Of a DNA stretch of 54,885 nucleotides, positions 24,649 to 43,932 are shown in pieces; the stretch's first letter is position 1, and every line of letters begins with the position of its first letter. The notes beneath the pieces were generated by a model. The model was not told the DNA's origin. It searched no databases and saw only the letters and a list, made by a program, of their open reading frames with translations. The translations under genes were made by a program, and so were the position numbers. This DNA comes from an uncultured Lachnospiraceae bacterium (GTDB taxonomy: Bacteria > Bacillota > Clostridia > Lachnospirales > Lachnospiraceae): the NCBI GenBank assembly GCA_947169235.1, contig CAMVOY010000008.1, forward strand, positions 1 to 54,885, in the 5' to 3' direction.

Positions 24649-24678
24649 TTCTATGTAAAATCTGATCATTTTTCTATG
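24649..24678. repeat. candidate integrase arm sites, left end
   Basis: TTCTATG occurs at 24649-24655 and 24672-24678; the right end of the element carries three copies (43720-43744). The matching AATTCTATG context at both ends suggests integrase arm-type binding sites. Confidence 0.4.
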
Positions 24679-24735
24679 CTTTTTCCCAAAACCGTTCTTG
24701 TTGTGGAAATCAATAAGAAAGGACAGGTGAATACC

Positions 24736-26289: not shown

Positions 26290-26379
26290 GTCTGTATGCA
26301 GTGGGTAATAGTAGTTAGACAAATAGTAAGCATCAGGGATTTTCTCCAAAAAAGAGTGATCCCGGAAAGTGAGGTTATC

Positions 26380-26715
26380 ATGAGTAGAAAAAAAACAAAG
26401 GCTGAGCCGCGAGAGATCTACTCGTTCCGGATCAGCAGGGATGAAAAAGAAAAGCTTTATGCGAATGCGAAAACCTATGGAGTCAGTCCCTCGGAGTATT
26501 TGCGGGCGGTTGCAGTAAGCGGAAATGCCTATGATCCGAAACTTAGCGAGGACAGACAAAAACTGTTGGAAGGGATATCACGAATCGGCAACAACATCAA
26601 TCAGATAGCCAGGTGGGCAAACACGAATCAGACAGTTTCTCAAGATACCGTCGAGAACGTGTGGGGAGAGCTGATCTCCATACATAAGCTGATATCAATA
26701 ATAACAGGCAGGTGA
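26380..26715 (+). CDS. mobC: MobC-like mobilization accessory protein
   Basis: 111-residue protein that helps the relaxase at oriT. The N-terminus has a ribbon-helix-helix-like strand (IYSFRISRDEKEKLYANAKT) and the C-terminus the diagnostic MobC signature RIGNNINQIARWANT. Start at 26380 after GTGAGG; the longer open frame upstream runs through the oriT candidate. Its stop overlaps the relaxase start region, so the two are translated together. Confidence 0.85.
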   Translation: MSRKKTKAEPREIYSFRISRDEKEKLYANAKTYGVSPSEYLRAVAVSGNAYDPKLSEDRQKLLEGISRIGNNINQIARWANTNQTVSQDTVENVWGELISIHKLISIITGR

Positions 26716-26720: not shown

Positions 26721-28601
26721 ATGGCCATAACGAAAATACTGAGCCTCAATATGTCAAAGACCGGCGATTCGGCATCCCACCTGCTCAACTCCCTTCATTA
26801 CATCGTAGATGTCGAGAAGACCGAAGAACATGCGCTGGTCGGGAGCGTCAACTGTCTTCCGATTGCAGACGAAGCCTATAAGCAGATGGTTGAGACGAAG
26901 AAGTTTTTCGGAAAGCAGACCGGTAGACAGGGCTATCAGATTATCATTTCTTTCGAGAAGGGAGAAACAACGCCGGATGTCGCGTTTCAGATCGCAGGGG
27001 AGTTTACTGAGCAATACCTGAAAAATCAGTATGAATGTCTCTATGCTGTTCATGATGACAAGGAGCATTGTCATATCCATATTGTGTTCAATAGCGTGAA
27101 TCTGGAGACAGGGCGGAAGTTCTCCTATAAAAAGGGAGACTGGAAACATGTGATGCAGCCGATCACCAACCGGCTTTGTGAAAAATACGATTTGAACATC
27201 ATGCCGGCGGAGTACAGCACCGAGAAGACCAATCTGCCACGAGATATCTACAATCAGCAGCAAGAGTATCGGGAGCTGATCAAAGAGGATTGCGAATATG
27301 TCCTTAGTATCGCGGAGGATGTGAATCATTTCATATGGCTCCTCCGCGAGATGGGATATTCGGTTAAAGAGGGAAAACACATCGCGGTTACGATCCCCGG
27401 TATGAAACGATATGCCAGGATTGATTCCATAGATAAGCGGTTTTCAAGAGAAGGAATCGAGTCAGGAGTGAATCGTGGGTTCCGGATACTGAAGTTCGGA
27501 TACCTGACTGAGCCGGTCGTGTACAAAAAGACTACCGGACCGTTTACACTTATCATCTGTTACCGGAAGCAGTTAAGAGGCAGGCGGGCAGCCGATGTTC
27601 ATCGTTTTAAGTACCATTCGGCATATCTGTACAAGCAGATCAAGATTTTTTACAGGCTGCAGGAGGAATACCTCTTTATGGTGGATCACAAACTTGAGAC
27701 AGCTGAAGATGTCCTGAAATGCGGCAGAGCATTCCTTGATGAAATCAAACACATTGAAGAATGTCAAAAGAAGATCTACCGCGAAAACGCCGCATTAAAG
27801 AGAAAATGTAAATCCATCGAGGATGTCCCTTCGTATCAAAGGAAGCATTATGATAACGAGAAACAGCTTAAGGAGCTGTCGGCGAGAAAGAAGGATTTGA
27901 AACATCAGTATGACCTTCTTGTGAGAATATATTGCCGGAGTGATGAAAACGATTTTGAGCCGGAGTTTAATCGGATTGCTGATGAGTGGGACGGAAAAGA
28001 GATCGAGGCATCGCAGGAGGAACTGCTTGCCGAAGTTCCGGAGTACCCACCACATAAAGAGCGCAGAGAAGCAGCTGAAAAGGCAGCTAAAGAAGCACAG
28101 GAAAAAGTAGCCAGGGAAGCGGCAGAAAAGGCAGCAAAGGAAGCGGCCAAAAAAGCAGCAAAAAAGGAAGCTAAAGATATGGCTGAAAGAGCTGCCAGAG
28201 AAAAAGCGGCTCGGGAAACGGCAGAAAAGGCGGCCCGAGAGAAAGCTGAGAAAGAAGCAAAGGAGAAAGCAAAACAAATAGCACAAGACCTGATAGAGTC
28301 CTATCAGGCAGATGAGGAGGTATATTATGACAGAAGAACAAAAGAAGGCTCTTTGGAATCTGGAGCAGGAGGATTTGATCAATCTTATTCTGTCTCAGGA
28401 TGGGAAAGTCAGCAAACTGAAAAAAGCGAATTCCAATCTTTCCTCGCAGAACAACGAGCTAATCGAGCAAGTGAAGGAAGACGGGGACGAGATAAAGAGG
28501 CTGAACGACAGAATCGGGAGCTTGAGCGACAGCGACAAGGAATTGAAGGAAGCGAACCGGTTAAAGAAAGAAGTCGAGAAAGATCGGGAAGAGCTCGATG
28601 A
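26721..28601 (+). CDS. MobA/VirD2-type relaxase
   Basis: 626-residue conjugative DNA-nicking enzyme. Candidate nucleophile Y27 in NSLHYIVDVEKT, and the metal-binding histidines in EHCHIHIVFNSVN (H116, H118, H120) identify a relaxase of the MOBP type. After the nuclease domain comes a long coiled coil, including about 90 residues of EKAAKEA-type Ala/Lys/Glu repeats (roughly 450-540), then an Arg/Gln/Glu-rich tail. Start at 26721 (AGGTGA 6 nt upstream); an in-frame GTG at 26712 is possible. The last 275 nt overlap the next gene in another frame, so the tail is either genuinely dual-coded or dispensable. Confidence 0.88.
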   Translation: MAITKILSLNMSKTGDSASHLLNSLHYIVDVEKTEEHALVGSVNCLPIADEAYKQMVETKKFFGKQTGRQGYQIIISFEKGETTPDVAFQIAGEFTEQYLKNQYECLYAVHDDKEHCHIHIVFNSVNLETGRKFSYKKGDWKHVMQPITNRLCEKYDLNIMPAEYSTEKTNLPRDIYNQQQEYRELIKEDCEYVLSIAEDVNHFIWLLREMGYSVKEGKHIAVTIPGMKRYARIDSIDKRFSREGIESGVNRGFRILKFGYLTEPVVYKKTTGPFTLIICYRKQLRGRRAADVHRFKYHSAYLYKQIKIFYRLQEEYLFMVDHKLETAEDVLKCGRAFLDEIKHIEECQKKIYRENAALKRKCKSIEDVPSYQRKHYDNEKQLKELSARKKDLKHQYDLLVRIYCRSDENDFEPEFNRIADEWDGKEIEASQEELLAEVPEYPPHKERREAAEKAAKEAQEKVAREAAEKAAKEAAKKAAKKEAKDMAERAAREKAARETAEKAAREKAEKEAKEKAKQIAQDLIESYQADEEVYYDRRTKEGSLESGAGGFDQSYSVSGWESQQTEKSEFQSFLAEQRANRASEGRRGRDKEAERQNRELERQRQGIEGSEPVKERSRERSGRAR

Positions 28602-30365: not shown

Positions 30366-30371
30366 ATTAGG

Positions 30372-30500: not shown

Positions 30501-30539
30501 TTTCAAATAGTATACGTATGTTTTTTGCGAGGTAAAAAA

Positions 30540-31085
30540 ATGTTTTGTATGGTTATGGCTATGGTGGATTCACCTGATGACAAGGACAAGGTGAAGAAGC
30601 TATATAACAAGTATAATAAGCTAATGCTGTACGTATCAAACGGAATCCTGCATAATCCGGCAGATGTTGAGGATGCAGTGATGACCGCTTGGGAGCGTAT
30701 TCTTAAAAACCTTAACAAAATCTCTGAAATTTCTTGTCCGGAAACGAAGAGTTTCATCGTTACAGTAATTGAGAGGATATCCATAGATCTCTACCGTAAG
30801 AATACCAGAATACGAGATAAAGAGGCGCCGATAGATGCGTTTGAGGATTCGCCATTCTTTGCAACCGCAGATAAGGAGATGGAGGGCGTGGAAATCAGAG
30901 ATGCGATAAACCGTATTCCAAAAGTTTATGCAGAGGCACTCTTGCTGTACTATCTGAATGACATGACTATGAAGGAGATGTCTGAAATGCTTGAAATATC
31001 CGAAGATGCAGTAAGTAAAAGAGTTCAAAGAGGAAGAGCACTAATTAAGCAGAGCTTGGAAGGAGGGGTTGACCATGACAGATGA
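30540..31085 (+). CDS. ECF-type RNA polymerase sigma factor
   Basis: 181-residue sigma-70-family factor with only regions 2 and 4. Region 2: LYNKYNKLMLYVSNGILHNPADVEDAVMTAWERILKN, with RISIDLYRKN. Region 4: INRIPKVYAEALLLYYLNDMTMKEMSEMLEISEDAVSKRVQRGRALIKQ, the -35-binding helix-turn-helix. Start at 30540 (GCGAGG upstream) rather than the earlier TTG. It overlaps the next gene, a membrane-anchored anti-sigma candidate, by 11 nt. Likely directs RNA polymerase to promoters of the lipoprotein cargo downstream (inference). Confidence 0.9.
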   Translation: MFCMVMAMVDSPDDKDKVKKLYNKYNKLMLYVSNGILHNPADVEDAVMTAWERILKNLNKISEISCPETKSFIVTVIERISIDLYRKNTRIRDKEAPIDAFEDSPFFATADKEMEGVEIRDAINRIPKVYAEALLLYYLNDMTMKEMSEMLEISEDAVSKRVQRGRALIKQSLEGGVDHDR

Positions 31086-31782
31086 CGAGATCAGAGAAGT
31101 GCTGAGGGGTTATGTGGCGGTAGAGATGGCTCTTTTGCCGGAGGATGATGAGATACCTGGTTTTCCTCCCTTTTCCCGCAGGTATAAGAGGAGAATGAGA
31201 GAGCTGTTAGGAGCCCACAGATACTTTGGTGGCAGGGTTAACGTATATCGTATCGTCAGAAAAGCTGCCATTTTCGTTATAGTATTACTGAGTTTAATCT
31301 CGGCAAACACTATAAGTGCGCATGTTTTAGGTATCGATCCGTGGAATTATATCACATCTTTTGTGTCGGATGTTATCATGGAGAAAAAGACTTATGTGAA
31401 GAATGAGTCGGTTGATATGTCACAGGTTCCAAAACCTGTTTCAGACAGACCGTTATATGTGCCGGAGGGGTATAAACAGACCGGACAGCTTATTGATGAA
31501 ACATACGTTGTTGATATCTCTTGGGAGAATAATGGTAAGTATATCGGTTATAATCGGGTTGAAATGCTTGGAGGAGCGTTTACTAAAACAACGGATGCAG
31601 AATACGAATCAGTTAAGAATGTGTCCATTGCCGGCATTCTGGGAAAGCTGTATAAAAAAGGAGATGAGTATTGGCTTGATTGGAGTGATGAGAACTATTC
31701 ATATGATATCGATTCGGAAGGAGTTGACAACCCTGAAATAACGTTAAAACGTATGGCTGAAAGTATTTATCAAAAAAAATGA
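31075..31782 (+). CDS. putative anti-sigma factor, single-pass membrane protein
   Basis: 235 residues: cytosolic N-terminal domain of about 60 residues (DDEIREVLRGYVAVEMALLP..), one membrane helix KAAIFVIVLLSLISANTISA, and an extracellular domain ending DIDSEGVDNPEITLKRMAESIYQ. Overlap with the sigma gene and this topology are those of an anti-sigma factor; the outer part resembles DUF4367-like sensing domains. RBS AGGAGGGG 6 nt before ATG. The 3' end, about 35 codons, is present in whole or part two more times downstream as gene fragments. Confidence 0.75.
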   Translation: MTDDEIREVLRGYVAVEMALLPEDDEIPGFPPFSRRYKRRMRELLGAHRYFGGRVNVYRIVRKAAIFVIVLLSLISANTISAHVLGIDPWNYITSFVSDVIMEKKTYVKNESVDMSQVPKPVSDRPLYVPEGYKQTGQLIDETYVVDISWENNGKYIGYNRVEMLGGAFTKTTDAEYESVKNVSIAGILGKLYKKGDEYWLDWSDENYSYDIDSEGVDNPEITLKRMAESIYQKK

Positions 31783-31874
31783 GAAACCCTTGTCCGATTT
31801 CGTCTTCCGCCGTCGTTATAGTGTATAGAGGGATGAAAAGAATCCTCTAAAATACTTAAGGAAAGGAGAAAGAT
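31679..31874 (+). repeat. dispersed repeat copy A: anti-sigma 3' end plus leader
   Basis: Last part of the anti-sigma gene, then a conserved stretch beginning GAGAAACCCTTGTCCGATTT, with CGTCGTTATAG and the hairpin AGAGGGAT..AATCCTCT, and ending in AGGAAAGGAG before the next start. This copy has eight A before TGAG, which creates the anti-sigma stop; copies B and C have seven A and read on. Confidence 0.8.
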
Positions 31875-32342
31875 ATGCTCGGATTCGAAGGTGACAAGCT
31901 TTCGACAAGAAAGGTAAGAATACTATCACTAGTTTCTCGAATAGTAACAATGGCAATACTTATAGTAGTGATTATAATAAAAATCAATTTGCCATTTTTT
32001 TGTGATGGGGTTCGGATTGCCTATGGACTGGGGTTTTCAGAAATGTCAGGGGTTCTTCTGATAAACGTTGTATTTAGTGTAACGCTTATAATTATAACCT
32101 GTACATGTTTGATAGTGTTACGAACGGAAGTATGCGTATTTTGTAGGATACTATGCTTGATAATTATGGTCGTTCTTGAATTGTTGTATATGCGAGATCC
32201 TGCAGAGTTTCACATCGGCGAAACTACAAAGTGGTTTTGGTTAAGTATAATGCTGTATTTGGTTGGAATAATAATAAATTCGGCATACATTGTGTTTGGA
32301 TTCAGGAAGAAAAGTATACACAACATTTTTGGAAAGAGCTAG
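31875..32342 (+). CDS. small membrane protein, four helices
   Basis: 155 residues with hydrophobic segments at about 20-38, 57-78, 84-104 and 118-140; short basic ends (KLSTRKVR, FRKKSIHN). No known family. Its start sequence, RKVRILSLVSRIV, resembles the truncated peptide encoded in repeat copies B and C (RMPVRLVILVCRV), so those contain broken relatives. RBS AAGGAGA. Confidence 0.6.
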   Translation: MLGFEGDKLSTRKVRILSLVSRIVTMAILIVVIIIKINLPFFCDGVRIAYGLGFSEMSGVLLINVVFSVTLIIITCTCLIVLRTEVCVFCRILCLIIMVVLELLYMRDPAEFHIGETTKWFWLSIMLYLVGIIINSAYIVFGFRKKSIHNIFGKS

Positions 32343-32372
32343 TGAGATTCGATATTGTGTTGGAAGCATAAT

Positions 32373-32639
32373 TGAAGGAGTTGACAACCCTGAAATAACG
32401 TTAAAACGTATGGCTGAAAGTATTTATCAAAAAAATGAGAAACCCTTGTCCGATTTCGTCTTCTACCGTCGTTATAGTGTATAGAGGGATGAAAAGAATC
32501 CTCTATAACACTTAAGGAAAGGAGGAAAGTGTTTATGATCTGGAACAAAAGAATGCCGGTACGATTGGTGATACTAGTCTGTAGAGTCTGCTATTGAATA
32601 TGAATATATCAAATGCGGATAGTTGATTAGATGATTCTA
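32373..32639 (+). repeat. dispersed repeat copy B
   Basis: Contains the last about 21 codons of an anti-sigma-like gene (EGVDNPEITLKRMAESIYQK) without the body, the conserved leader, RBS AAAGGAGGAAAG and a 20-codon remnant (MIWNKRMPV..) that stops in a TAG/TGA-rich stretch. From 32515 to 32638 it is identical or nearly so to copy C. Confidence 0.85.
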
Positions 32640-32740
32640 GTAGATAATGGAGCTATGTGGCATTCTTATTAATATGCAGGGAAAGTTGCTCGACCAAAAT
32701 ATGGGCGAGTAACTTTCCTGTTTCGTTAGGGAGGATAGAG

Positions 32741-33862
32741 ATGAAAAGACCTTTTATGATTGCTATAATTCTAGGTGGAATATCATTATTAGCATGTGTT
32801 ATGGTTATAATGTCAAATAGTTATGACGATTCATCAAGTTGTTTGAAAGCTGAAAGGGCTAATAAGCAAACAGATTACAAACAAGATAGTTACTTGTCGA
32901 TTACATATACTCTACCTGATCCAAAGGCAGAAAGTGGCAGGAAAATGGTCTTTTATACATATGATCTCAACAATTCAGCATTGAAAGAACAAGCAGAAAT
33001 ACCTTTTGAATCGCAATATGCACTTGGATGTGTAGATATTAAAAGAGGCAAAGTATACTATTCTGCTGAAGATAAAGAGCATGGCAAGTTTGGTTCTGAT
33101 GTAAACGGAGTAGATCACTTGTTTGAATATGATATAAAAGCAAAATCAGCAGTTGTAATAGAAAAAGAAAACAGGGCGTATAACGATATTGTTTTAATTG
33201 ATGATAAATTACTGGTTACCACGATACCGTTGCATGCAATTACTACGGGTATGTTTGACTTGAATTCGCGTAAGTTTATTTTTAAATCGCCTAAGTGTAG
33301 GAATGAAGATGGGTATATTGATTACAAATATGACACGAGACCTGTAAAGCTTAATTACAATCCGAAGTATAAAGCATTTTTGAATGTGTGTGCAGTTGAG
33401 GATGACTTGTATGATATAGGCTTTAGAACCGGGGAAAAGGGAATAATATATACAATCAATTATATAAATAAGGATCTGGATATCATTACAAGTATTCCCT
33501 TTAAAATTAAGGATTTTAACTATGAGATCTCGGCCATATGTCAAACTTCAAAGAATCATGCACTTATGTTGGAAAGGGTATTTAGCGATGATGGAAGCAG
33601 TACGCAATTAAAGTACTATGATGTCGACTTGTCTACAAAAGAATGTAAAGAGACAGAGTCTCCATTTCCGGATCTGGTGAATGTAAAGAATTATTTTACT
33701 GTTGATGGTGGGAAAACCTTTTTTATCATAGGTGGGAAAAGTGGTGGAGAACAGGGACTACTGAAATATGACAGTCAAAGCAAAAAGTATGAAACAATTC
33801 TTAAAGACACAGATACTTCACATGTAGTAAACTGTTGTTGCGTGTCATCAGCGGGAGTATGA
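32741..33862 (+). CDS. membrane-anchored beta-propeller-like protein
   Basis: 373 residues: N-terminal membrane anchor/signal MKRPFMIAIILGGISLLACVMV (an LLAC lipobox is possible, Cys about 18), then a region of short beta-strand repeats (..GKVYYSAED.., ..HLFEYDIKAKS.., ..LKYYDVDLSTKE.., ..GLLKYDSQSKKYE..) like propeller blades. Start at 32741 after GGGAGG. Its 3' end (..NCCCVSSAGV) stops just before repeat copy C and may have been trimmed by recombination. Distantly like the lipoprotein at 38483. Function unknown. Confidence 0.6.
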   Translation: MKRPFMIAIILGGISLLACVMVIMSNSYDDSSSCLKAERANKQTDYKQDSYLSITYTLPDPKAESGRKMVFYTYDLNNSALKEQAEIPFESQYALGCVDIKRGKVYYSAEDKEHGKFGSDVNGVDHLFEYDIKAKSAVVIEKENRAYNDIVLIDDKLLVTTIPLHAITTGMFDLNSRKFIFKSPKCRNEDGYIDYKYDTRPVKLNYNPKYKAFLNVCAVEDDLYDIGFRTGEKGIIYTINYINKDLDIITSIPFKIKDFNYEISAICQTSKNHALMLERVFSDDGSSTQLKYYDVDLSTKECKETESPFPDLVNVKNYFTVDGGKTFFIIGGKSGGEQGLLKYDSQSKKYETILKDTDTSHVVNCCCVSSAGV

Positions 33863-33896
33863 TACTAATCTATCAGACTACGCCAAGTATGATGAC

Positions 33897-34202
33897 ATTG
33901 GAGAGATGAAAACTATTCGTATGATATCGATTCGGAAGGAGTTGACAACCCTGAAGTTGAGCTAAAACATATGGCTGAAAGTATTTATCAAAAAAATGAG
34001 AAACCCTTGTCCGATTTTGTCTTCCTCCGTCGTTATAGTATATAGAGGGATGAAAAGAATCCTCTATAACACTTAAGGAAAGGAGGAAAGTGTTTATGAT
34101 CTGGAACAAAAGAATGCCGGTACGATTGGTGATACTAGTCTGTAGAGTCTGCTATTGAATATGAATATATCAAATGCGGATAGTTGATTAGATGATTCTA
34201 AT
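33897..34202 (+). repeat. dispersed repeat copy C
   Basis: Longest copy. Begins with about 35 codons of an anti-sigma-like C-terminus (RDENYSYDIDSEGVDNPEVELKHMAESIYQ; differs from copy A at PEVELKH versus PEITLKR), then the same leader, RBS and 20-codon membrane-protein remnant as copy B. Coding differences show it came from a different paralogue than copy A. Confidence 0.85.
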
Positions 34203-34234
34203 GGGATGATCCCTGCTGCAGGAGGTGCTTACTC

Positions 34235-34645
34235 ATGGACTTCAACCATATCAAACTGGTTTTTATCTTGATAGCTATCGTTGCTCTTCCAATCGGCACA
34301 TTGACTGCTTGTACAAATGAAGTTGCTGTTGTAAAAGATGATAAGACTACTAGTTCTGAAGATGAAAATGAGATTATATATGACTATGCTCCGGTAATAA
34401 TGTATGATAGACATATGTATCGAGCAAATAGAGAATATGTAGAATCATTAGGCGAAACAGTAGATTTATCAAATATGAAGATGGTTGGCAAAGTAAAAAA
34501 ATACATTAAAAACCGACCGTTAAACAATTCGGACGAGGACTTTTCATGTACAGCGCCATGTGTGGGGAAAGATGTCTATTTAAGTAAATCAGGAAGCCTT
34601 TTTATAGAGGAAGACTTTGGCTATTCAGAATGGATTACTAATTAA
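34235..34645 (+). CDS. small lipoprotein, paralogue of next gene's N-half
   Basis: 136 residues with signal peptide and lipobox LTAC (Cys about 26). The mature part, APVIMYDRHMYRANREYVESLGETVDLSNMKMVGKVKKYI.., aligns with residues about 60-150 of the following gene (PPAIKFRGKIYISRRDYQ..DVGKVERSI). RBS GGAGGTG. Either a single-domain version or a truncated one. Function unknown. Confidence 0.6.
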   Translation: MDFNHIKLVFILIAIVALPIGTLTACTNEVAVVKDDKTTSSEDENEIIYDYAPVIMYDRHMYRANREYVESLGETVDLSNMKMVGKVKKYIKNRPLNNSDEDFSCTAPCVGKDVYLSKSGSLFIEEDFGYSEWITN

Positions 34646-34802
34646 GGTCATTGCAATTTTGAATGGTTATGGAAAAACTAAAAAGGGACTTGCTCATGCG
34701 GTTACTGTATGGCATGGATAGTTAAGTCATGCGAGTTGAAGTAGAATACAGAAGATACGTCAAGCGCGGCGCAGATTATCAGTTAAAGGGAGGAATTCAA
34801 AG

Positions 34803-36218
34803 ATGAGTGTGTATGAAAGGAAAGTATCTGTAGGACTCGGGATATTTTTCCTGGCGATGGTGCTCTGCGCTGTTGTGATGATGGTGACAGGGTGCGGGGA
34901 TGACGGTGGCGGTGAAAAGGAGTCGGAAGCGAAGACCTATGAAGAGGCTATAGCAGAGACGCTTGCTATAACGGATGACACCCCGGGCTGTCTTCCACCT
35001 GCTATAAAATTCAGGGGGAAGATTTACATATCTCGTAGAGACTATCAAAAAGAATTTGGTGAAGATGTAGACTGTTCTGAGTTGAGGGATGTGGGTAAAG
35101 TGGAGCGTTCTATCGTGAATGGAACGGCACTTTCCGGAAAGGATGAGGATTATACTGCTAATTATGCTGACATGGTCGGAGAGACTATCTATCGCCGCGA
35201 AAACGGAAATCTCGTGATCAAAAACGATATAGGAGCGAGCGAATACTATATTGAAGGTCAGGATGAGACTTATCATGATTTATACCTGTCGGAGCAGTCG
35301 GATAAAAGCTGTCTTGTTAAAACAAAAACTATAAAAAGGAAAGACGATCATTTTGATTATGATATAGAATATCCATATATAACACCTGCTCAGGGTGAAA
35401 AAAACTATGATAGTGTTAATAAACTGATCGAGGATACTGTTTTAGAGAAAACCGGGTATGCTGAAGTTGAGAGAGAAAGCGACGAAGAAAAGCAGGAGAG
35501 AAAGCTTTACATCAAGCTTGATTACAAGATAAGAAAGCTGTCACATAGGATACTCTCGGTAAGCTTTGAAGGATTTTATTCGGAGAAGAATGCCATCCAT
35601 CCGATCAATCTCGATTTCTGCTTCAACTATAACCTCGAGAGTGATAGTGAGATTTGTCTTTCAAATGTTGTTCCGGATATGGTAAAGATGTACAAAGAGA
35701 TGCCGGACGCGATCAATCACCAGATATGGCTGGACAGCAAGGATAAAAAGCAGGTGATCGATTTGCAAGATGCGTGGAAAGAGCATGGAAAAGAGCAGAT
35801 GGAAGCGCTTGATCATTTCTATATCGAGGGAGATCATGTATACTTCCGCGTGACAGTTACCGCGGGAGCCGGGTTTCATTACTATGTAAAGGTCAACAGG
35901 CACGATACATCTTCAGATAAGTATAGTCAAAAGGAAATCATCGATGGGATGAATGTCGTTGAAAAGGCGGTTAAGAGCTGGGGAGGATGTACCCTGAACG
36001 AGCTCTACTATGCCGGTGACGATTACTCCGCCAACTATCAGGATTGGGCATACAGAAATAAAGCAGATGATGTGATCGTGTTCCTGTCCTCGTTTTATGT
36101 AGATATAGATGGTGACAAATCGGGGGCACTGAATCCCGATAGTGAGTATCCGGGCTACTGCTTCATTCTCGTAAGGAAAAACGGCGGGAAGTGGAAGTAT
36201 GTGGATGGCGGATACTGA
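34803..36218 (+). CDS. lipoprotein with DUF4163/DUF3298-like sensor domain
   Basis: 471 residues. Signal peptide with lipobox VTGC (Cys about 31). An N-terminal domain is shared with the gene before it; then a region of about 250 residues (YPYITPAQGEKNYDSVNKLIEDTVLEK.., LDYKIRKLSHRILSVSFEGFY.., SEICLSNVV) resembles the DUF4163-DUF3298 pair found in RsiV-type anti-sigma and PdaC proteins, which bind lysozyme or peptidoglycan. The leader DNA (34816-34896) is almost identical to that of the lipoprotein at 37697. RBS AGGGAGGA. Suggests an envelope-stress role (inference). Confidence 0.65.
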   Translation: MSVYERKVSVGLGIFFLAMVLCAVVMMVTGCGDDGGGEKESEAKTYEEAIAETLAITDDTPGCLPPAIKFRGKIYISRRDYQKEFGEDVDCSELRDVGKVERSIVNGTALSGKDEDYTANYADMVGETIYRRENGNLVIKNDIGASEYYIEGQDETYHDLYLSEQSDKSCLVKTKTIKRKDDHFDYDIEYPYITPAQGEKNYDSVNKLIEDTVLEKTGYAEVERESDEEKQERKLYIKLDYKIRKLSHRILSVSFEGFYSEKNAIHPINLDFCFNYNLESDSEICLSNVVPDMVKMYKEMPDAINHQIWLDSKDKKQVIDLQDAWKEHGKEQMEALDHFYIEGDHVYFRVTVTAGAGFHYYVKVNRHDTSSDKYSQKEIIDGMNVVEKAVKSWGGCTLNELYYAGDDYSANYQDWAYRNKADDVIVFLSSFYVDIDGDKSGALNPDSEYPGYCFILVRKNGGKWKYVDGGY

Positions 36219-36287
36219 ACCGGCTGGAGCAGATAGGTCGCTTAGGTCTTACAAGTTATTAAAAAGGGGATCGAGGAGGGACGAGCC

Positions 36288-37073
36288 ATGAAGATGAACC
36301 TCAAGATAGCTGTCATATGCGTTGTGATCGCAATTCCTGTTGTGTGGCTTGTTATTGTTACGCATACTCCGCTACATCTGTCGGAGCTCATGGATACAGA
36401 GGATGTGAGCCGGATCGAGATTCAGCTGTATGGAAATCCTGAAGAGGCGGTGGAAATCACAGATGATACAGTCATAGTCAATACAATAAAACGACTTGAT
36501 GATATAACGCTCGCCAGATACTTTTTTAATTGGGACAGGGGTGACGGTTGTAGCGCGTATGTATTGTGTTTCTACCATGAGAGTGCTAAAGAAGATGATC
36601 CGAAATCGTGTAGCAGGTTCGATCTATATTATTCGTTTGACTATGACGGATCTCGGGTTGATTATGACGGAGCCCGGTATGCGGATGCCGGACAGTATCA
36701 GGCATTGGTACGAGAGCTCTTTGATCGATATGATAAAAAGCCACGCCTGGAAACAAACTATGACAGGATCGACCTGACGGTGGGAGATAAAACGGTATCT
36801 GTCGGGTATGACGATTCAGATGGGAGTTATGATCAGGAGCGGATACTGGGCGCGCTTGAGAGACAGGAGCTGCGCTTGACAGATGGAAAGGAAAAGCCGG
36901 AGAAAGCGGAAATACGGTTGTCTTTGTATGGCGCAGATGAAAATGGTAATGATAAGCAAATTGAGATACTGATAGATAAGTATGTTTGGATCGATGATAA
37001 GGCGTATTCGGCGAAAAGCATATCCGAACTGGAGACTATGCTTAAGAATATACTGAAGACTGTCAGTTTATGA
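36288..37073 (+). CDS. membrane-anchored protein of unknown family
   Basis: 261 residues: N-terminal membrane helix IAVICVVIAIPVVWLVIV and an extracytoplasmic domain with VSRIEIQLYGNPEEAVEITDD. This block matches IEKIEIQLIVVPEKHIVITD of the gene at 41010, and a second similar unit (KAEIRLSLYGADENGND..IEILID) sits near the C-terminus. RBS GAGGAGG. No known family; a paralogous pair within the element. Confidence 0.55.
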   Translation: MKMNLKIAVICVVIAIPVVWLVIVTHTPLHLSELMDTEDVSRIEIQLYGNPEEAVEITDDTVIVNTIKRLDDITLARYFFNWDRGDGCSAYVLCFYHESAKEDDPKSCSRFDLYYSFDYDGSRVDYDGARYADAGQYQALVRELFDRYDKKPRLETNYDRIDLTVGDKTVSVGYDDSDGSYDQERILGALERQELRLTDGKEKPEKAEIRLSLYGADENGNDKQIEILIDKYVWIDDKAYSAKSISELETMLKNILKTVSL

Positions 37074-37131
37074 AAAATACGCTGATCCGTTTTTTTTGAT
37101 ACTATTAACAACAGTTTTAAGGAGAAGAACT

Positions 37132-37596
37132 ATGACTAACGAAAAAGCAATTACCACAACTCAAAAAGTAATAAGGATTATAAAGCCGTTGAGCTTGATA
37201 GTTTATTTGATCATTTGGGCGTTGTGCCTTGGAGCGTTCTATGTTATCAAGGACGACTCAGGAGGTTTTGGGTATACAATACTTGTTATTTATATTGTTA
37301 TTCCGGTGTCTACATTTGTTGCTTCCGTCCTGTTTGGAGCGTTTGACTTTGGAGGGAAGCTCAAGTGGATATGGCCGGTATTCTTTGGGTTCATGTATAT
37401 GCTTTTAGAATATGTCACGTATAGATTGGGTAACACTATTGCTTTTGGAAATATCAATCCTCTTGACAAGGATGATTTAATGATGTTTGTTAATGGCTTA
37501 ATAGTATCTGCATTCGCGATCATTGTCGGGCACATCGTGTATTTGACGGTGGTACGAAGATATGATTTGTTGAAAACCAAGAAAACGATGAGTTAA
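37132..37596 (+). CDS. four-helix membrane protein
   Basis: 154 residues with hydrophobic segments about 20-40, 47-70, 78-98 and 122-142. RBS AAGGAGA. No family recognised. Followed by a 100-nt gap with the direct pair GCAAACCTTGACA / GCAAATCTTGATA. Confidence 0.55.
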   Translation: MTNEKAITTTQKVIRIIKPLSLIVYLIIWALCLGAFYVIKDDSGGFGYTILVIYIVIPVSTFVASVLFGAFDFGGKLKWIWPVFFGFMYMLLEYVTYRLGNTIAFGNINPLDKDDLMMFVNGLIVSAFAIIVGHIVYLTVVRRYDLLKTKKTMS

Positions 37597-37696
37597 AAAA
37601 GTTTACTGCACAAATGAACATATGCGCGAAAATCGGGCAAACCTTGACAAAAACGACGAAAAATAGGCAAATCTTGATACCTAGGGAGAAAGAACC

Positions 37697-38236
37697 ATGA
37701 GAATACATAAAAGGAAAGTATCTGTAGGACTCGGGACATTTTTCCTGGCGATGGTGCTCTGCGCTGTTGTGTTGATGGTGACTGGGTGCGAGGATAAAGT
37801 TGGAGTAGCCGGTGATTACAAGGTGGCCGCAGTAAACCTGATGGGGAGAAATGTAGAACCAACTGTGGCTGATGAAGATCTGGAAGGGAAGTATTCAGTT
37901 ACACTAACGCTTAAGGAAGATGGAACAGGCCGGTTCACCATGGACGGTAAAGGAGTGGATGTAGTTTGGCAGTTGAACGAGGGCGAGCTTTCTGTCAAGG
38001 ACGGTGACGGAAAGAGGATCGAGTATTATGTCGGTGGAGCAGGCGGAAGCATTTTGTACAAGGACGGAAGGATATGGTGCAACATAGGCAAGGACGGATA
38101 CAATATAGAATCCCTGGTGCTTGCTAAGGATGGTGATGATCTGTTTGATTTGGGTGTTTTGTCGTATGACGATGCGATGAAGGAGTTTTTCGGCAGTTAT
38201 CCGTCGGAGATCGCGAGTCAAGAACCGGCACAGTAG
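37697..38236 (+). CDS. lipoprotein with duplicated leader, probably truncated by an amber codon
   Basis: 179 residues. Signal peptide VSVGLGTFFLAMVLCAVVLM with lipobox VTGC; the leader DNA differs from that of the gene at 34803 at only 3 of 81 positions, while the mature part (DYKVAAVNLMGRNVEP.., GTGRFTMDGKGVDVVWQLNEGELSV) is unrelated and resembles small lipocalin-like beta domains. The frame stays open past the TAG at 38234 into a tail that matches the end of the 38483 protein (DSIEYDPAMSS), so the stop looks like a nonsense mutation. Confidence 0.6.
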   Translation: MRIHKRKVSVGLGTFFLAMVLCAVVLMVTGCEDKVGVAGDYKVAAVNLMGRNVEPTVADEDLEGKYSVTLTLKEDGTGRFTMDGKGVDVVWQLNEGELSVKDGDGKRIEYYVGGAGGSILYKDGRIWCNIGKDGYNIESLVLAKDGDDLFDLGVLSYDDAMKEFFGSYPSEIASQEPAQ

Positions 38237-38480
38237 GACGAAGAGGATCCTGAGAATACAGAGGAATCAAAGAGTGATATAGAAGAAGGAGATATTGATT
38301 CTATCGAATACGATCCTGCGATGAGTTCTAAACCGGGTTTCCCGATGGTTGTTTTTTGGGATGAGGATAAACAGCGATATAGAAGGGAATCCAGTTCACC
38401 CTGTTGAATCGGTAACAGATGAATCATCTGTTGCTGATTCATTGGGGAAAACAGGATTGGAAGAACAACTGGGGGATTAA
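38237..38480 (+). pseudogene. decayed 3' part of a lipoprotein gene
   Basis: In frame with the gene before it, this reads DEEDPENTEESKSDIEEGD.. DSIEYDPAMSSKPGFPMVVFWDED, matching residues about 375-415 of the 38483 product (EESKSDTEE.. DSIEYDPAMSSIPGYPIIAFWDEE). A further frameshift near 38368 leads into an open stretch (NSDIEGNPVHPVESVTDE..) that stops 2 nt before the next start. One nonsense and one frameshift mutation would explain it. Confidence 0.65.
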
Positions 38481-38482
38481 TA

Positions 38483-39913
38483 ATGAAAAGGATCAGTGTA
38501 ATTTGTCTGATAGCAATTATGATAACGTCTTCAATAGGTTTGAGTGCATGTGGTGAGGCCATAAAGGAACGAAATAAACCAGTAGGAAACTTAGTAGGTG
38601 TTATTTATACTGAATCTGAGTCAAAAGATACAAGAATACTTGTATATGATGATCAGGGAAATGAAATTGATACTACAAAGTATAAAATGGCATCAGTGGG
38701 AAGATTTGGTTTTGGAAGTGTTCAGTGTAGAAAGGGCGTTATGTATGAAATCGCAAATGGATATGCATCTGCTAAGAACGCTGGAATTGTTATGTGCTAT
38801 GACCTTAGTACCGGCAGGATTGATGAAATAAAGTTTGGCCGAAGTGGAATGACCGATTTAAAAGTCACGGATAAGTATCTATATGTTCTTAGTAACATTA
38901 ATAACAATACATTTATTGATCGGTATTGTTTCGATACAAAAGAAATCAAAACATTTACTCTTGAAGGCGGTGTATCTACTGAGTTTACAGTATCGGAGAA
39001 TGATAAGGTTTATTATATCGACCTCGACTATTCGTTGTTCTCGGTGGATATAGACCAAAAAGTGAATAAAGAAATATGCAAGTTGGAATCTCCCAGTGAT
39101 TATATGTTTGCAAATGACGATAATGTTTATCTTTCAATGTCATATGGAACGAGTGAAATGCTTGTAGTGAATGGAGTGAATGGAAAAACCCGATCTATCG
39201 ATTTGAATATTTCTGAGTCGGGGATGCCATACTATCAGGATGGATATCTGTACGTATCATCAGCTGATCCTACGCAGTTCAGCGATTCCCAGGAAATAGT
39301 CAAGTTGGACTTAAAAGATGAAAAGGTTGTAGACAAATGGGATTTTAATCATGGGATAATGAAATATGCATTGATCAAAGACATGTTATATACTGTTGAT
39401 TGGGATAATAATATGCTTAGAATCTATGATGTCAGTAAAAAAACCGCATCCAAGCCTTTCCTAAAATGTGAAGTTGATATGACAGACAAAAAAGGAGATT
39501 GTTTCCTATCTGGAATGGGAATTGCAAAATGTGGATCTGATGAAATGGACAAAAGGATAGTCCCTATTGAAGAACCGTCAAAGCCGGATAATGAGGTTTC
39601 TGATACAATAGAGGAATCAAAAAGTGATACAGAAGAGATTGATTCTATTGAATACGATCCTGCGATGAGTTCTATACCGGGGTATCCGATTATCGCTTTT
39701 TGGGATGAGGAAACGAACCGTGATAATAAAGTCAAGCTTAAGTGTTCGCAAGGTGAGTTTATAAAATGGGATCGGAAAACAGGAAAAACACATGGTTTAG
39801 GAAAAACTCATACGTATAGACCCGATGAGGATATTTATTGGTCGCCACTGGTAGATCAATCATTCAAAGACAGTACCACTATTATCGCGACGAGCATTAA
39901 GGGGGGGCGTTAA
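38483..39913 (+). CDS. beta-propeller-like lipoprotein with frameshift at a G7 tract
   Basis: 476 residues as read. Signal peptide with lipobox LSAC (Cys about 23), then propeller-type repeats (TKYKMASVGRFGFGSVQCRKGVMYEI.., LKVTDKYLYVLSNINNN.., NDKVYYIDLDYSLFSVDI..) and an acidic linker before a C-terminal part. The frame ends 4 nt after seven G (39901-39907). With six G it would continue KGGVKEKCGEIEISTSENGT.. and stop at 39989, 3 nt before the next start, the spacing expected in this operon. Function unknown. Confidence 0.6.
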   Translation: MKRISVICLIAIMITSSIGLSACGEAIKERNKPVGNLVGVIYTESESKDTRILVYDDQGNEIDTTKYKMASVGRFGFGSVQCRKGVMYEIANGYASAKNAGIVMCYDLSTGRIDEIKFGRSGMTDLKVTDKYLYVLSNINNNTFIDRYCFDTKEIKTFTLEGGVSTEFTVSENDKVYYIDLDYSLFSVDIDQKVNKEICKLESPSDYMFANDDNVYLSMSYGTSEMLVVNGVNGKTRSIDLNISESGMPYYQDGYLYVSSADPTQFSDSQEIVKLDLKDEKVVDKWDFNHGIMKYALIKDMLYTVDWDNNMLRIYDVSKKTASKPFLKCEVDMTDKKGDCFLSGMGIAKCGSDEMDKRIVPIEEPSKPDNEVSDTIEESKSDTEEIDSIEYDPAMSSIPGYPIIAFWDEETNRDNKVKLKCSQGEFIKWDRKTGKTHGLGKTHTYRPDEDIYWSPLVDQSFKDSTTIIATSIKGGR

Positions 39914-39992
39914 GGAGAAATGTGGGGAAATTGAAATATCTACAAGTGAAAATGGAACATATAAAGCAAGAAGGATAAAGAGGGGCTGATGG

Positions 39993-40916
39993 ATGATAAA
40001 AAGAGGAAAGGCTATATTATTGGTATTAGTATTACCATTTATTGCTTATTCGTCGATTTCAAGAGCATATTGTAAAGTAGAAACACTTAACCAGAATTCA
40101 GACGATTTTGAAGCAATAAAAAAGCTGGAGGACCAGGCAAAATCTATGCTGAAAGAATTATATGTGCATGATACAAATAATGAGTTTCCGGAAAATGTGA
40201 GTATTGATTTTGGAAGTGCAGAGAAGGTCTATGTAGATACCCCAATATTCAATCTTGATGACGAAAGTACCGAGGAGATGGAAAGCCAATTAAAGCAATC
40301 CGATTATATATGGTTACTAAATGTTGATGTTTATGGTGAAACATATGGAATCACATTTTCAAAAGGCATGCCTTTGCGTGAGGAGGTAAAGGATATCTTG
40401 ACTGAAGATGAAATAAATGCCATTAAAAGAGATGAAGGAAAGTGGCATGTTTCCTGTGTGGATCATGCGGAAGCCCATATAGATGATTATGCTGAAATAG
40501 TCGATGCAGCGTTGAAAGATATGAATTATAACGTATCTGACTCGAAAGTCGTCATATGTGGAGGACTTCAGCATATCCATAACCCAGTTGCAATAGTGAT
40601 GGATGACGATGAGGCTCAACTCCTTATTCCGATGGAAGAAATGGAGGTTGAGGGAACGCCGAAGCAAATCGATGATGCAAAACCGAATGGGGCAGATGAA
40701 AGTGATGAGGTATACTTGTATAGCGCAATAAAGGATGCTGTAAATGATATGGATCTTGGAAATATTGAAGTTGCTGGATCAGGGGCTGCGATAGTGCTAT
40801 CATCAAAAAGAAGAATTGATTCTTCTCACATAGTTGTTCTTTCAATTGTAGGTGTGTTTGCTGTTTTACTGGCGGTGTATTCGGTAGTTCGGAACAAGAA
40901 GAGAAGTAGCCGTTGA
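39993..40916 (+). CDS. secreted protein with C-terminal membrane anchor
   Basis: 307 residues: signal peptide (KAILLVLVLPFIAYSSISRA), an acidic extracellular domain, and a C-terminal membrane helix IVVLSIVGVFAVLLAVYSVV with basic stop-transfer KKRSSR, so type I topology. No known family. RBS AGAGGGG 8 nt before ATG. Confidence 0.55.
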   Translation: MIKRGKAILLVLVLPFIAYSSISRAYCKVETLNQNSDDFEAIKKLEDQAKSMLKELYVHDTNNEFPENVSIDFGSAEKVYVDTPIFNLDDESTEEMESQLKQSDYIWLLNVDVYGETYGITFSKGMPLREEVKDILTEDEINAIKRDEGKWHVSCVDHAEAHIDDYAEIVDAALKDMNYNVSDSKVVICGGLQHIHNPVAIVMDDDEAQLLIPMEEMEVEGTPKQIDDAKPNGADESDEVYLYSAIKDAVNDMDLGNIEVAGSGAAIVLSSKRRIDSSHIVVLSIVGVFAVLLAVYSVVRNKKRSSR

Positions 40917-41009
40917 CTGTGGTTTAGGAGAAAAAGTCTCTTTAATGCTTATATATGGTCTAGCTCGCTTTCGGAATAAGGTCCTATGACATGACAAAGG
41001 GAGATGTTT

Positions 41010-41411
41010 ATGAAATCAAGTATACCCAAGTATATACCGCGAGTCTTAATTGTTGTTTCAATCCTTCTTATTGTAGTTTGGTGGTTTTGGCCTCGCAAGA
41101 TAGAGGGTTTTGTCAACAAGGAGAGTATTGAGAAAATAGAGATACAATTAATCGTTGTACCCGAGAAACATATAGTTATTACTGATAGTAAGGAAGTTAG
41201 TGAGTTTTATGACAAAATGAACTCATACTCGTTCCATAGGGGGTTGCTAACGGGTGGAGATGGGATGTCTTGTAATGTAATGATTCATTTAAAGGATGAA
41301 CGAACTTGCAAAATCTCATTTAACTCGATGTTGTGTATTGACGGTTGGAATTATTCTTTAAATACTGGTATGCTTGATGCAGTAAGAAAAGAATTAAAAA
41401 AGCGAGAGTGA
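41010..41411 (+). CDS. small membrane-anchored protein
   Basis: 133 residues with one N-terminal helix (VLIVVSILLIVVWWFW) and an outer domain beginning IEKIEIQLIVVPEKHIVITD, related to the gene at 36288. RBS AAAGGGAG 6 nt before the second ATG, which is preferred over 41004. Confidence 0.55.
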   Translation: MKSSIPKYIPRVLIVVSILLIVVWWFWPRKIEGFVNKESIEKIEIQLIVVPEKHIVITDSKEVSEFYDKMNSYSFHRGLLTGGDGMSCNVMIHLKDERTCKISFNSMLCIDGWNYSLNTGMLDAVRKELKKRE

Positions 41412-41420: not shown

Positions 41421-41464
41421 AAAAAGCCTTTTTGTAAAGCTTTTTTACAGAAAGGCTTTTTTTT
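41421..41464. terminator. bidirectional terminator
   Basis: Stem AAAAGCCTTT..TGTAAA / TTTACAGAAAGGCTTTT with A-rich and T-rich flanks, between the end of the cargo and the convergent repressor gene. Confidence 0.8.
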
Positions 41465-42443: not shown

Positions 42444-43715
42444 ATGATGGTAAGAGAGAAGGATGGAGCCAAAAATTACTATTTCACATTTGGCTACGTG
42501 GATCCTTACACAAAAAAGAGTAAGACCAAATGGGTGAACACGAAAATCCCGGTAACAAGAAAAACACAAAGAGCAAAAGATGAAGCATTTGCTGTAGGGC
42601 TGGAACTTAGAAAGCAGTTTCTTGATGATCTCAAGAGAGGTGTAGAGGGAAAGACCGTTCAGCATAGGAATCGAAAGTCTCATGCCGGAGATACGGTGGC
42701 TGAGTATGCGGAATACTGGATTTCGGAGATTCGAGGATCTGTTCAGGACAATACTCTGGATTCGTATGAGATCCCGCTGAGAAAGCACATTATCCCCAGA
42801 ATAGGGGATATCATCCTTGGTGAGTTGGATCAGTATGATCTGAAAGAGTTTATCAATCTCGAGTTGGCTGATTGTGAAGAACGCAAGAAACGTATCGAAA
42901 AGATGATTGAGGATGCTGACGGGAAGGAAGTGAAGATTAGCAGCAACATTAAACCGTACTATGCTTCAATCCGAAAGCATCTAAAGATCATCCACATGAT
43001 GCTGAATTATGCGGTCAGCGAGGGAGACATCGAAGTAAATGTAGCTGAACATATCAATCCGCAGGTTCTGAAGAAGATTCCTCAAAGCGATTTCGAGTCA
43101 CATCCTTATTCAAAGGAAGAACTTGCCGTATTGCGAAATGCAGTCAGAGGAGATCACCTGGAGTCGGCGATAATGATTGCTTCGTACATTGGTGTCAGAC
43201 GTGAGGAAGTGCTTGGGTTGCGTTGGCGGGATATCGATTTTGACAACCGTTGTATCCGTATATGCCATGTCTGTCGATTGGTAAAGTCTAAAGTTGAATA
43301 CTCGGAAAGGATGAAATCGAAGTCTTCCAAGAGGGTTGCCGTGATGATTGATCCGCTCCGAGATTATCTGCTGGAGCTGAAAAAACAGCAGGAAGAGGAC
43401 AAGAAGCTGTTCGGTTCTGGTTATTATGACACCGATTTGGTCTGTCGATGGAATGATGGGAGACCAATCAATCCAAACAATCTCACCGTGGGGTTTTCGC
43501 GCCTTATCAAAAAGGCGGGGCTGAGACATACAAGGTTTCATGATCTCAGACACAGTGTAGCTACCATCATTATCGAAGAAACCGGTGACTTGACACTTGC
43601 ATCGGCGGCATTGGGACACTCTGATACCAAAATCACAGCCGATGTGTACATCAATCATGATGAAAAGGCAATTGCAAAGGGATTTGAAGCATTGGATACA
43701 AGTGATATGGAATAG
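42444..43715 (+). CDS. int: tyrosine site-specific integrase
   Basis: 423-residue tyrosine recombinase that inserts and removes the element at tRNA-Leu. N-terminal arm-binding domain (FTFGYVDPYTKKSKTKWV), SAM-like core-binding domain (VAEYAEYWISEI..), catalytic domain with R252 (GVRREEVLGLRW), H366-x2-R369 (HDLRHS), H392 (LGHSD) and nucleophile Y402 (VYINH). Length and layout match Tn916-type integrases. RBS AAAGGAG. It ends 165 nt before attR. Confidence 0.95.
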   Translation: MMVREKDGAKNYYFTFGYVDPYTKKSKTKWVNTKIPVTRKTQRAKDEAFAVGLELRKQFLDDLKRGVEGKTVQHRNRKSHAGDTVAEYAEYWISEIRGSVQDNTLDSYEIPLRKHIIPRIGDIILGELDQYDLKEFINLELADCEERKKRIEKMIEDADGKEVKISSNIKPYYASIRKHLKIIHMMLNYAVSEGDIEVNVAEHINPQVLKKIPQSDFESHPYSKEELAVLRNAVRGDHLESAIMIASYIGVRREEVLGLRWRDIDFDNRCIRICHVCRLVKSKVEYSERMKSKSSKRVAVMIDPLRDYLLELKKQQEEDKKLFGSGYYDTDLVCRWNDGRPINPNNLTVGFSRLIKKAGLRHTRFHDLRHSVATIIIEETGDLTLASAALGHSDTKITADVYINHDEKAIAKGFEALDTSDME

Positions 43716-43880: not shown

Positions 43881-43932
43881 CTAAGGATCTAGTGGTGGCA
43901 ACACCGTGTGGGTTCAAGTCCCATCTTCCGCA
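43881..43932 (+). repeat. attR core (52-bp direct repeat)
   Basis: Perfect copy of the tRNA-Leu 3' end at 24533-24584. The element's right end is the preceding base pairs. Confidence 0.93.

What the first reader, a model, noticed from the sequence alone, without database searches (positions are those of the whole stretch)
30540..41411. ECF sigma-controlled, recombining lipoprotein array on a mobilizable element
A sigma/anti-sigma pair is followed by about nine membrane-anchored or lipoprotein genes that include several paralogous pairs (34235/34803, 36288/41010, 32741/38483). They are interspersed with fragments of the anti-sigma gene and its leader. No enzyme or toxin family is recognisable. 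Seen: the gene order, repeats and lipoboxes. Inferred: the sigma factor drives these envelope proteins and the array diversifies by recombination. I know of no described system with this layout.
Basis: partly seen in the sequence, partly recalled or inferred. Interest (0 to 1): 0.75.

Follow-up and report, generated by a model that had tools for sequence, protein, structure and literature searches.

The report
Sigma-controlled cassette array on mobilizable element
A bacterium carries a small mobile DNA element whose stress-sensing gene switch probably turns on a patchwork of surface-protein genes assembled by swapping with similar gene clusters elsewhere in the chromosome and in related species.

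Summary
Mostly real. The array is cargo of a 19.35-kb mobilizable element in tRNA-Leu (52-bp repeats at 24533 and 43881; actin-like protein, MobC, relaxase, integrase). An ECF sigma gene and a DUF4367 anti-sigma gene precede ten membrane/exported genes ending at one strong terminator. The "anti-sigma fragments plus leader" are three copies of a promoter unit, each holding TTGTC-N19-CGTTATAG. In the own 2.37-Mb genome the exact motif occurs four times: these three, and before a related lipoprotein behind another ECF sigma gene. It follows anti-sigma in 10 of 21 related loci and precedes sigma in none of 21. A near copy lies inside the sigma ORF, where synonymous codons are unusually conserved in 22 homologues (0 of 300 permutations). 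Unit copy 2 is a recombinant of copies 1 and 3. Two cargo units match other arrays at 92% and 98% DNA identity, with edges at ribosome-binding sites. The pair 32741/38483 is not paralogous. Inferred: sigma drives the cargo and its own anti-sigma; cargo is exchanged among envelope-stress loci by recombination. What the cargo protects against is unknown; one lipoprotein has a marginal PdaC/DUF4163 match. New variant of a known kind.

The parts
24533..24584 (+). attL: 3' end of tRNA-Leu (24500-24585), 52-bp direct repeat
   Evidence: same 52 bp at tRNA-Leu in Lachnospiraceae bacterium P6B14 (G001), where none of the element follows in the 18 kb read
43881..43932 (+). attR: 52-bp direct repeat, 100% identical to attL
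24676..25647 (+). actin-like (ALP) protein
   Evidence: ALP_N 9.4e-10
26284..26715 (+). MobC/NikA-like relaxosome protein
   Evidence: NikA-like 6.9e-14, MobC 8.4e-10
26721..28601 (+). MobA/VirD2-type relaxase
   Evidence: Relaxase 5.1e-33
42444..43715 (+). tyrosine integrase
   Evidence: Phage_integrase 3.6e-24
30540..31085 (+). ECF sigma factor
   Evidence: Sigma70_r2/r4_2; start set by homologues
30734..30765 (+). promoter-like element inside the sigma ORF: TTGTC-N19-CGTTACAG
   Evidence: 7 of 13 sigma genes carry the loose motif at this place, codon-random mean 0.4; peak of synonymous conservation, 0 of 300 permutations
31075..31782 (+). anti-sigma factor, one TM, DUF4367 ectodomain
31679..31871 (+). 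promoter unit copy 1 (anti-sigma 3' end, promoter 31790-31821, hairpin leader)
31875..32342 (+). c1: small multi-TM membrane protein
   Evidence: hydrophobic by inspection of the translation; truncated relative behind c6 in own C4
32374..32639 (+). promoter unit copy 2 (promoter 32446-32477), recombinant of copies 1 and 3, ends in a 20-codon ORF stub
32741..33862 (+). c2: protein with N-terminal signal/anchor (by inspection), no family
33897..34200 (+). promoter unit copy 3 (promoter 34007-34038), same 20-codon stub
34235..34645 (+). c3: small lipoprotein, paralogue of the N-terminal part of c4
34803..36218 (+). c4: lipoprotein; middle PdaC/DUF4163-like (177-256, just under cut-off); last ~105 residues like the C-terminus of BlaR1-type receptors
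36270..37135 (+). c5 unit (ORF 36288-37073, anchored protein), 92% identical DNA in two other species' arrays
37119..37599 (+). c6 unit (ORF 37132-37596, multi-TM protein), 98% identical DNA in own contig C4 and P6B14
37697..38236 (+). c7: lipoprotein, signal-peptide stretch shared with c4; a c8-type linker remnant follows its stop
38483..39913 (+). c8: lipoprotein (lipobox by inspection); C-terminal domain (348-473) 56% identical to lipoproteins in own C79 and P6B14
39993..40916 (+). c9: exported protein with C-terminal TM
41004..41411 (+). c10: protein with N-terminal anchor (by inspection), weak paralogue of c5
41421..41461 (+). strong intrinsic-terminator-like hairpin closing the array
   Evidence: 19 pairs; the only other + strand site in 30100-42300 is a 5-pair one at 30421

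Best explanation
A chromosomal ECF sigma/anti-sigma module of this Lachnospiraceae-type genus was captured by a tRNA-Leu mobilizable element and works as an expression platform for exchangeable envelope-protein genes. The anti-sigma ectodomain (DUF4367) senses an envelope disturbance; freed sigma then transcribes from TTGTC-N19-CGTTATAG promoters. One lies inside its own gene and would raise the anti-sigma level (negative feedback); others lie after the anti-sigma gene and drive the cargo. The anti-sigma-end/promoter unit has been copied twice, so two further cargo groups start behind their own sigma promoter, and all run to one terminator. The cargo was assembled by homologous recombination with related arrays, with edges at promoter units, ribosome-binding sites and signal-peptide stretches. 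SHOWN: anatomy, motif position, synonymous conservation, recombinant copy 2, shared units at 92-98% identity. INFERRED: that this sigma reads the motif, the sensing step, the feedback, transfer by the element, and that the cargo protects the envelope.
For: Motif: 10 of 21 loci after anti-sigma, 0 of 21 before sigma; 4 of 4 exact own-genome sites at cargo, reversed-pattern control 0. Intragenic element: 7 of 13 genes vs codon-random mean 0.4, 0 of 300 permutations. No strong terminator before 41421, sigma-70-type sites at chance. Recombination: 8 sites joining unit copy 2 to copy 1 all precede 6 sites joining it to copy 3 (p about 7e-4), then 160 of 160 columns identical to copy 3. c5 and c6 units match other arrays and meet in a 16-nt ribosome-binding/start box. 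Own C79 and C19 arrays share blocks of about 1.6-3.4 kb at 94.5-98% with P6B14 and G019 arrays in which blastn finds no match to their sigma pairs. First gene after anti-sigma is membrane/exported in 11 of 16 loci vs 94 of 320 genes. Both other c6 copies lie behind this kind of sigma gene.
Against: No transcript data. The motif was read off the same loci in which it was counted, and 11 of 21 loci (8 of them of the more distant group) lack it. Genus-wide the loose pattern is not above its reversed control (22 vs 28); only spacing 19 at these places stands out. In a weight-matrix scan trained on nine other loci the intragenic site (19.7) and copy 3 (15.8) exceed, but copies 1 and 2 (12.8) do not exceed, the maxima of six simulated sequences (12.5-14.2). 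The codon test ignores shared ancestry, two of its seven motif carriers (L018, L055) are near-identical orthologues, and an anti-sigma run gave a weaker peak (2 of 200). Several segments are truncated remnants, so part of the array may be decaying. Flanking core genes between own C4 and P6B14 are also up to 99% identical, so high identity there is not by itself proof of cargo exchange. The two close c5 relatives sit in arrays without this sigma pair. No second copy of the element with other cargo was found.
Confidence: 0.58

Rival explanations
1. The array is a graveyard: an ordinary chromosomal sigma/anti-sigma locus landed in a mobilizable element, and cargo pieces from other loci piled up by chance recombination without selection for exchange. 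Only c1 or a few genes are truly sigma-driven.
For: Stubs and remnants: 20-codon ORF stubs in unit copies 2 and 3, linker remnant after c7, truncated c1 relatives in own C4 and P6B14, anti-sigma gene missing from own C4. Array families are rare: c8 in 3, c4 in 4, c6 in 2 of 39 genomes, the own one included.
Against: All ten cargo frames are open over 135-476 codons; the three promoter copies keep both motif boxes; c6 protein is 100% identical to its chromosomal copy; arrays with exchanged blocks recur at several loci and in three species.
Confidence: 0.25
2. Orphan-immunity island: the cargo are membrane and lipoprotein immunity proteins against toxins of neighbouring bacteria, gathered on a mobile element as in acquired interbacterial defence (AID) clusters, with ECF control added.
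For: Mobile element, tandem diverse small surface proteins, a shared head with unrelated bodies, exchange between species.
Against: No immunity family found (Pfam for all ten cargo; NCBIfam for c2-c9 only; PADLOC for all ten, an anti-phage library); several cargo are large multi-domain lipoproteins; related loci carry a subtilase, LRR proteins and a C70-like protease rather than immunity genes.
Confidence: 0.12
3. Lysozyme or cell-wall-attack response like sigmaV-RsiV-LbpA: c4 is a surface decoy that binds a wall-lytic enzyme, and the other cargo act alongside.
For: c4 has a PdaC/DUF4163 stretch (2.4e-6, 29.0 of 29.1 bits) that weakly aligns to RsiV (NF052658 E 0.05). LbpA is an RsiV-like, lysozyme-binding protein in the C. 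difficile csfV operon (PMC9044953, passages).
Against: The anti-sigma ectodomain is DUF4367, not RsiV-like; no DUF3298 or solved-structure hit for c4; the AlphaFold model is unusable (pLDDT 36).
Confidence: 0.15
4. The conserved motif is not a sigma promoter but another DNA or RNA element (operator, attenuator or recombination site).
For: A leader hairpin follows it (z about -2.5 to -2.75), and the one mapped breakpoint lies just after it.
Against: Two separated boxes with nearly fixed spacing and a free spacer are typical of promoters (general knowledge); no Rfam family matches the region except the tRNA.
Confidence: 0.15

Closest known systems
Corynebacterium glutamicum SigH-RshA operon (PMC3489674; abstract and passages read)
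   Same: ECF sigma then anti-sigma gene; a sigma-dependent promoter inside the sigma coding region drives the anti-sigma gene, proposed to shut the response down
   Different: Chromosomal and no cargo array (redox type of anti-sigma recalled); here the intragenic promoter is inferred from codon conservation only
Clostridioides difficile sigmaV-RsiV with LbpA (PMC9044953; passages read)
   Same: Membrane anti-sigma; an operon partner that shares a domain with the anti-sigma factor
   Different: Other anti-sigma ectodomain (DUF4367), ten mosaic cargo genes, mobile element
Group 5 clostridial sigma factors such as UviA, BotR, TcdR (features recalled; search listing only)
   Same: Alternative sigma factor next to the cargo it transcribes, often on mobile DNA
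   Different: Positive regulators of toxin or bacteriocin genes without a membrane anti-sigma; no toxin family was recognised here
Acquired interbacterial defence (AID) clusters of Bacteroidales (search listing only; layout recalled)
   Same: Mobile arrays of diverse protective genes
   Different: T6SS immunity genes; no immunity family recognised here; no ECF control known to me
Integrative and mobilizable elements with actin-like protein, MobC and relaxase
   Same: Backbone genes in the same order in seven of ten fetched stretches; tRNA-linked integration here
   Different: None of the ten stretches fetched carries the sigma/anti-sigma pair

Membership tests
ECF sigma/anti-sigma pair | Sigma with regions 2 and 4 only, followed by an overlapping membrane anti-sigma gene | tested here: met
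ECF sigma/anti-sigma pair | Autoregulatory promoter upstream of sigma | tested here: not met
   Motif absent from the 160 nt upstream in 21 of 21 loci (some sigma starts approximate); a copy lies inside the gene instead
ECF sigma/anti-sigma pair | Anti-sigma binds and inhibits the sigma | not testable with these tools
   Needs biochemistry
Integrative mobilizable element | Integrase, relaxase, flanking att repeats at a tRNA gene | tested here: met
Integrative mobilizable element | No own mating-pair apparatus | tested here: inconclusive
   No such family among the 20 proteins scanned; small ORFs (26033, 30195, 42242) were not scanned
Integrative mobilizable element | Excision or transfer | not testable with these tools
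   P6B14 shows the tRNA site without this element, but the right flank is not syntenic there
sigmaV-RsiV-LbpA system | Anti-sigma with RsiV ectodomain | tested here: not met
   DUF4367 only; no NCBIfam hit
sigmaV-RsiV-LbpA system | Lysozyme-binding partner protein | tested here: inconclusive
   c4 PdaC match just under cut-off
AID orphan-immunity cluster | Genes of known immunity families | tested here: not met
   None in Pfam, NCBIfam (c2-c9) or PADLOC
Integron cassette array | IntI-type integrase and attC sites | not tested
   attC not searched; the integrase is a phage type next to attR; the unit edges seen are at ribosome-binding sites

The most novel reading that the evidence does not exclude
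A promoter-tagged cassette platform: an ECF module whose anti-sigma 3' end, promoter, ribosome-binding and signal-peptide stretches act as homology anchors, so that exported-protein genes are swapped between ECF, BlaR1 and mobile-element arrays of different species and fall at once under envelope-stress control. The sigma gene itself carries a conserved intragenic promoter for its anti-sigma.
Probability: 0.35. Interest if true: 0.75.

Novelty: new variant of a known kind. Interest (0 to 1): 0.58.

Why it matters
It would show how Lachnospiraceae-type Clostridia build stress-regulated surface repertoires by shuffling genes behind a portable sigma-factor promoter, and how a mobile element can carry such a repertoire. 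It gives a testable promoter for an ECF group with DUF4367 anti-sigmas, for which one full-text search found no paper, and a codon-conservation signature for a sigma-dependent promoter inside the sigma gene.

Tried and rejected
Paralogy of 32741 and 38483: rejected. A promoter upstream of sigma: looked for and not found. A first guess of AACC...CGTT as the cargo promoter (tried) was dropped when one search showed the TTGTC box. The 33-bp repeat near 37624 as a dispersed recombination site: rejected; of 10 hits in 39 genomes, 9 lie in this array, own C19, P6B14 C6 and G019 C135, and 1 in G017, whose stretch was fetched but not read. Element backbone with other ECF cargo: stretches from 10 of the 32 other genomes with relaxase hits (33 of 299 with the own one) were fetched, none has the pair. 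Sigma pair on plasmids or viral contigs: none (the viral scan finds close relatives only). L138 has two integrase genes upstream, but unrelated genes lie between them and sigma, so it was not counted as mobile. Higher identity of cargo than flanks at own C4/P6B14 was considered as proof of transfer and dropped: some flanking genes are equally close. Structure of c4: pLDDT 36, not used. c5 was searched in a family sample of 299, not through the whole genus; its two relatives came from loci fetched for c4 and c8. c1, c2, c3, c7, c9 and c10 were compared only with fetched loci, not with whole genomes.
Full report
WHAT IS THERE. The window is contig C8 of a 2.37-Mb genome in 106 contigs. Its close relative G001 is Lachnospiraceae bacterium P6B14, since a contig of the same length (125,407) at the same place carries that name. 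A tRNA-Leu gene (24500-24585) and a 52-bp identical repeat (24533-24584 and 43881-43932) bound 19.35 kb with an actin-like protein, MobC, a MobA/VirD2 relaxase and, next to the right end, an integrase. P6B14 has the same tRNA end (left flank 95.5% identical) and none of the element in the 18 kb that follow; its right side is not syntenic, so this is not a clean empty site.

THE SIGMA MODULE. Sigma (30540-31085) and anti-sigma (to 31782) overlap. A relative of the anti-sigma is found in 18 of 39 genomes of the genus, the own one included. Of 20 loci fetched from relatives, sigma lies beside it in 19; in L063 no sigma hit was scored, but an unlabelled gene of 159 codons stands in its place. The modules stand in different chromosomal contexts. 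What follows differs: a subtilase, an LRR protein, a C70-like protease, a SurA-like protein, small exported proteins. The first gene called within 1 kb downstream is exported or membrane in 11 of 16 loci against 94 of 320 genes overall (binomial p 0.0013). The gene caller was my own simple one; the window itself and L052 fell outside the 1-kb rule and are not in the 16.

THE PROMOTER. Aligning the stretches after the anti-sigma stop showed two boxes, TTGTC(C/A) and C(G)GTTATAG, 18-19 nt apart. By a fixed pattern this is present within 160 nt in 10 of 21 loci, in 0 of 21 upstream of sigma, and in 53 of 10,500 random windows of the same loci, real sites included. The pattern was derived from these loci, so the count is descriptive; 11 loci lack it, 8 of them of a more distant group. 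A genome-wide test is less circular: the exact pattern with spacers 17-20 has four sites in the own genome, all at cargo, and its reversed control none. Three are the array copies; the fourth is in contig C34, before a lipoprotein related to c3/c4, behind a different ECF sigma gene and its apparent anti-sigma. Over all 39 genomes the pattern is not enriched (22 against 28 for the control). But 12 of the 22 have spacing 19, and 9 of those 12 lie in a sigma locus or cargo array (one of the 9 inside a sigma gene); the other three (G013, G024:C56, G038:C6) were not looked at. One of the nine precedes the c5 relative in G019. A weight-matrix scan of the window trained on nine other loci is a weaker result: best is the intragenic site (19.7), next copy 3 (15.8), but copies 1 and 2 (12.8) are within the maxima of six simulated sequences (12.5-14.2).

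A PROMOTER INSIDE SIGMA. The same boxes at the same spacing lie in the sigma ORF at 30734-30765. 7 of 13 sigma genes carry the loose motif, at this same place, against a mean of 0.4 when codons are drawn at random for the same proteins (0 of 500 draws reach 7); two of the seven (L018, L055) are near-identical orthologues. Over 22 homologues, in pairs under 65% protein identity, agreement of codons for identical residues peaks at codons 66-77 with an excess of 0.195, against at most 0.105 in 300 permutations. The highest single value (0.214) is at the 3' end of sigma, but rests on 185 comparisons against about 1,500; one search asked for at least 1,000 and so left it out. The same test on the anti-sigma gene gives a weaker peak (0.135, 2 of 200). 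Permutations ignore shared ancestry. Such a promoter would make mRNA for anti-sigma but not for whole sigma. This is known for SigH/RshA of C. glutamicum (PMC3489674, abstract and passages).

THE ARRAY. Ten genes follow to a 19-pair terminator at 41421-41461, the only strong one on the + strand from 30100 to 42300; sigma-70-type matches are at the shuffle level. The 'fragments' are two more copies of the unit anti-sigma end/promoter/hairpin leader/ribosome-binding site. Copies 2 and 3 go on into the same 20-codon stub. Copy 2 is a recombinant: eight informative sites tie it to copy 1 and then six tie it to copy 3, in that order without exception, with the breakpoint between 32479 and 32506; after it, 160 of 160 columns equal copy 3. 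One site groups copies 1 and 3, and one differs in all three.

EXCHANGE WITH OTHER ARRAYS. The c5 unit (36270-37135) is 92% identical to parts of arrays in P6B14 and G019. The c6 unit (37119-37599) is 98% identical to own contig C4 and to P6B14. The two meet in a box AGGAGAAGNACTATGA that in the relatives stands before different genes. c4 and c7 share 97-107 nt of signal-peptide coding sequence and nothing after. Remnants of the c4 leader (93%) and the c6 tail (96%) lie in own contig C19. Own C79 and C19 arrays share blocks of about 1.6-3.4 kb at 94.5-98% with arrays in P6B14 and G019 in which blastn finds no match to their sigma pairs; the G019 array is headed by a BlaR1 M56 receptor (its BlaI-like neighbour is named by inspection only). 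In own contig C4 the sigma gene remains and the anti-sigma gene is missing. Against reading too much into identity: some core genes around own C4 and its P6B14 counterpart are as close (80-99%).

FUNCTION. No family places the cargo firmly. c4 holds a PdaC/DUF4163 match just below the curated cut-off and a C-terminal part like that of BlaR1-type receptors. An RsiV-like lysozyme-binding partner, LbpA, is known in the C. difficile csfV operon (PMC9044953, passages); this is a lead, not a match. PADLOC gave nothing for the ten cargo proteins.

PRINT. Searches for ECF with DUF4367 and anti-sigma (0 papers), extracytoplasmic function with Lachnospiraceae and mobile element (0 papers), ECF with lipoprotein and mobilizable (7 papers), and extracytoplasmic function, integrative and conjugative element, lipoprotein, gene shuffling (10 of 12 papers listed) showed no paper whose title or abstract start describes this layout; only listings were seen, and the library holds open-licence PMC papers only.

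VERDICT. The parts are known kinds. The combination, the duplicated promoter units and the intragenic promoter make it a new variant.

Noticed in passing
30734-30765: Promoter-like element inside the sigma ORF with strong synonymous-codon conservation in 22 homologues.
   Followed up: yes
L018 7889-9170 (own contig C4): Sigma gene whose anti-sigma gene is missing, followed directly by a copy of c6 and a truncated c1 relative.
   Followed up: partly
29620-30195: Protein with a weak JAB-domain match (Prok-JAB E 0.028) and an HTHP...SPDD stretch, between relaxase region and sigma.
   Followed up: no
43919-44105: Further partial copies and an inverted copy of the tRNA-Leu end beyond attR, perhaps scars of earlier insertions.
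   Followed up: no
L082 8758-10698 and L084 8251-10437: BlaR1-type receptors (M56 domain tested for L084 only) whose C-terminal ~105 residues are 43-45% identical to the end of lipoprotein c4.
   Followed up: partly
37616-37662; L083 4560-4728; L084 2174-2334; L092 14448-14531: 33-bp repeat unit, tandem in three related arrays and single here, plus one near match in G017.
   Followed up: partly
L092 12996-14339: A gene (MLARKHEGELKEY...) 99% identical in arrays of three species, so probably exchanged recently.
   Followed up: no
L016 13821-15280 (own contig C4): Second sigma/anti-sigma module of this family in the genome, followed by a Peptidase_C70-like exported protein and a lipoprotein.
   Followed up: no
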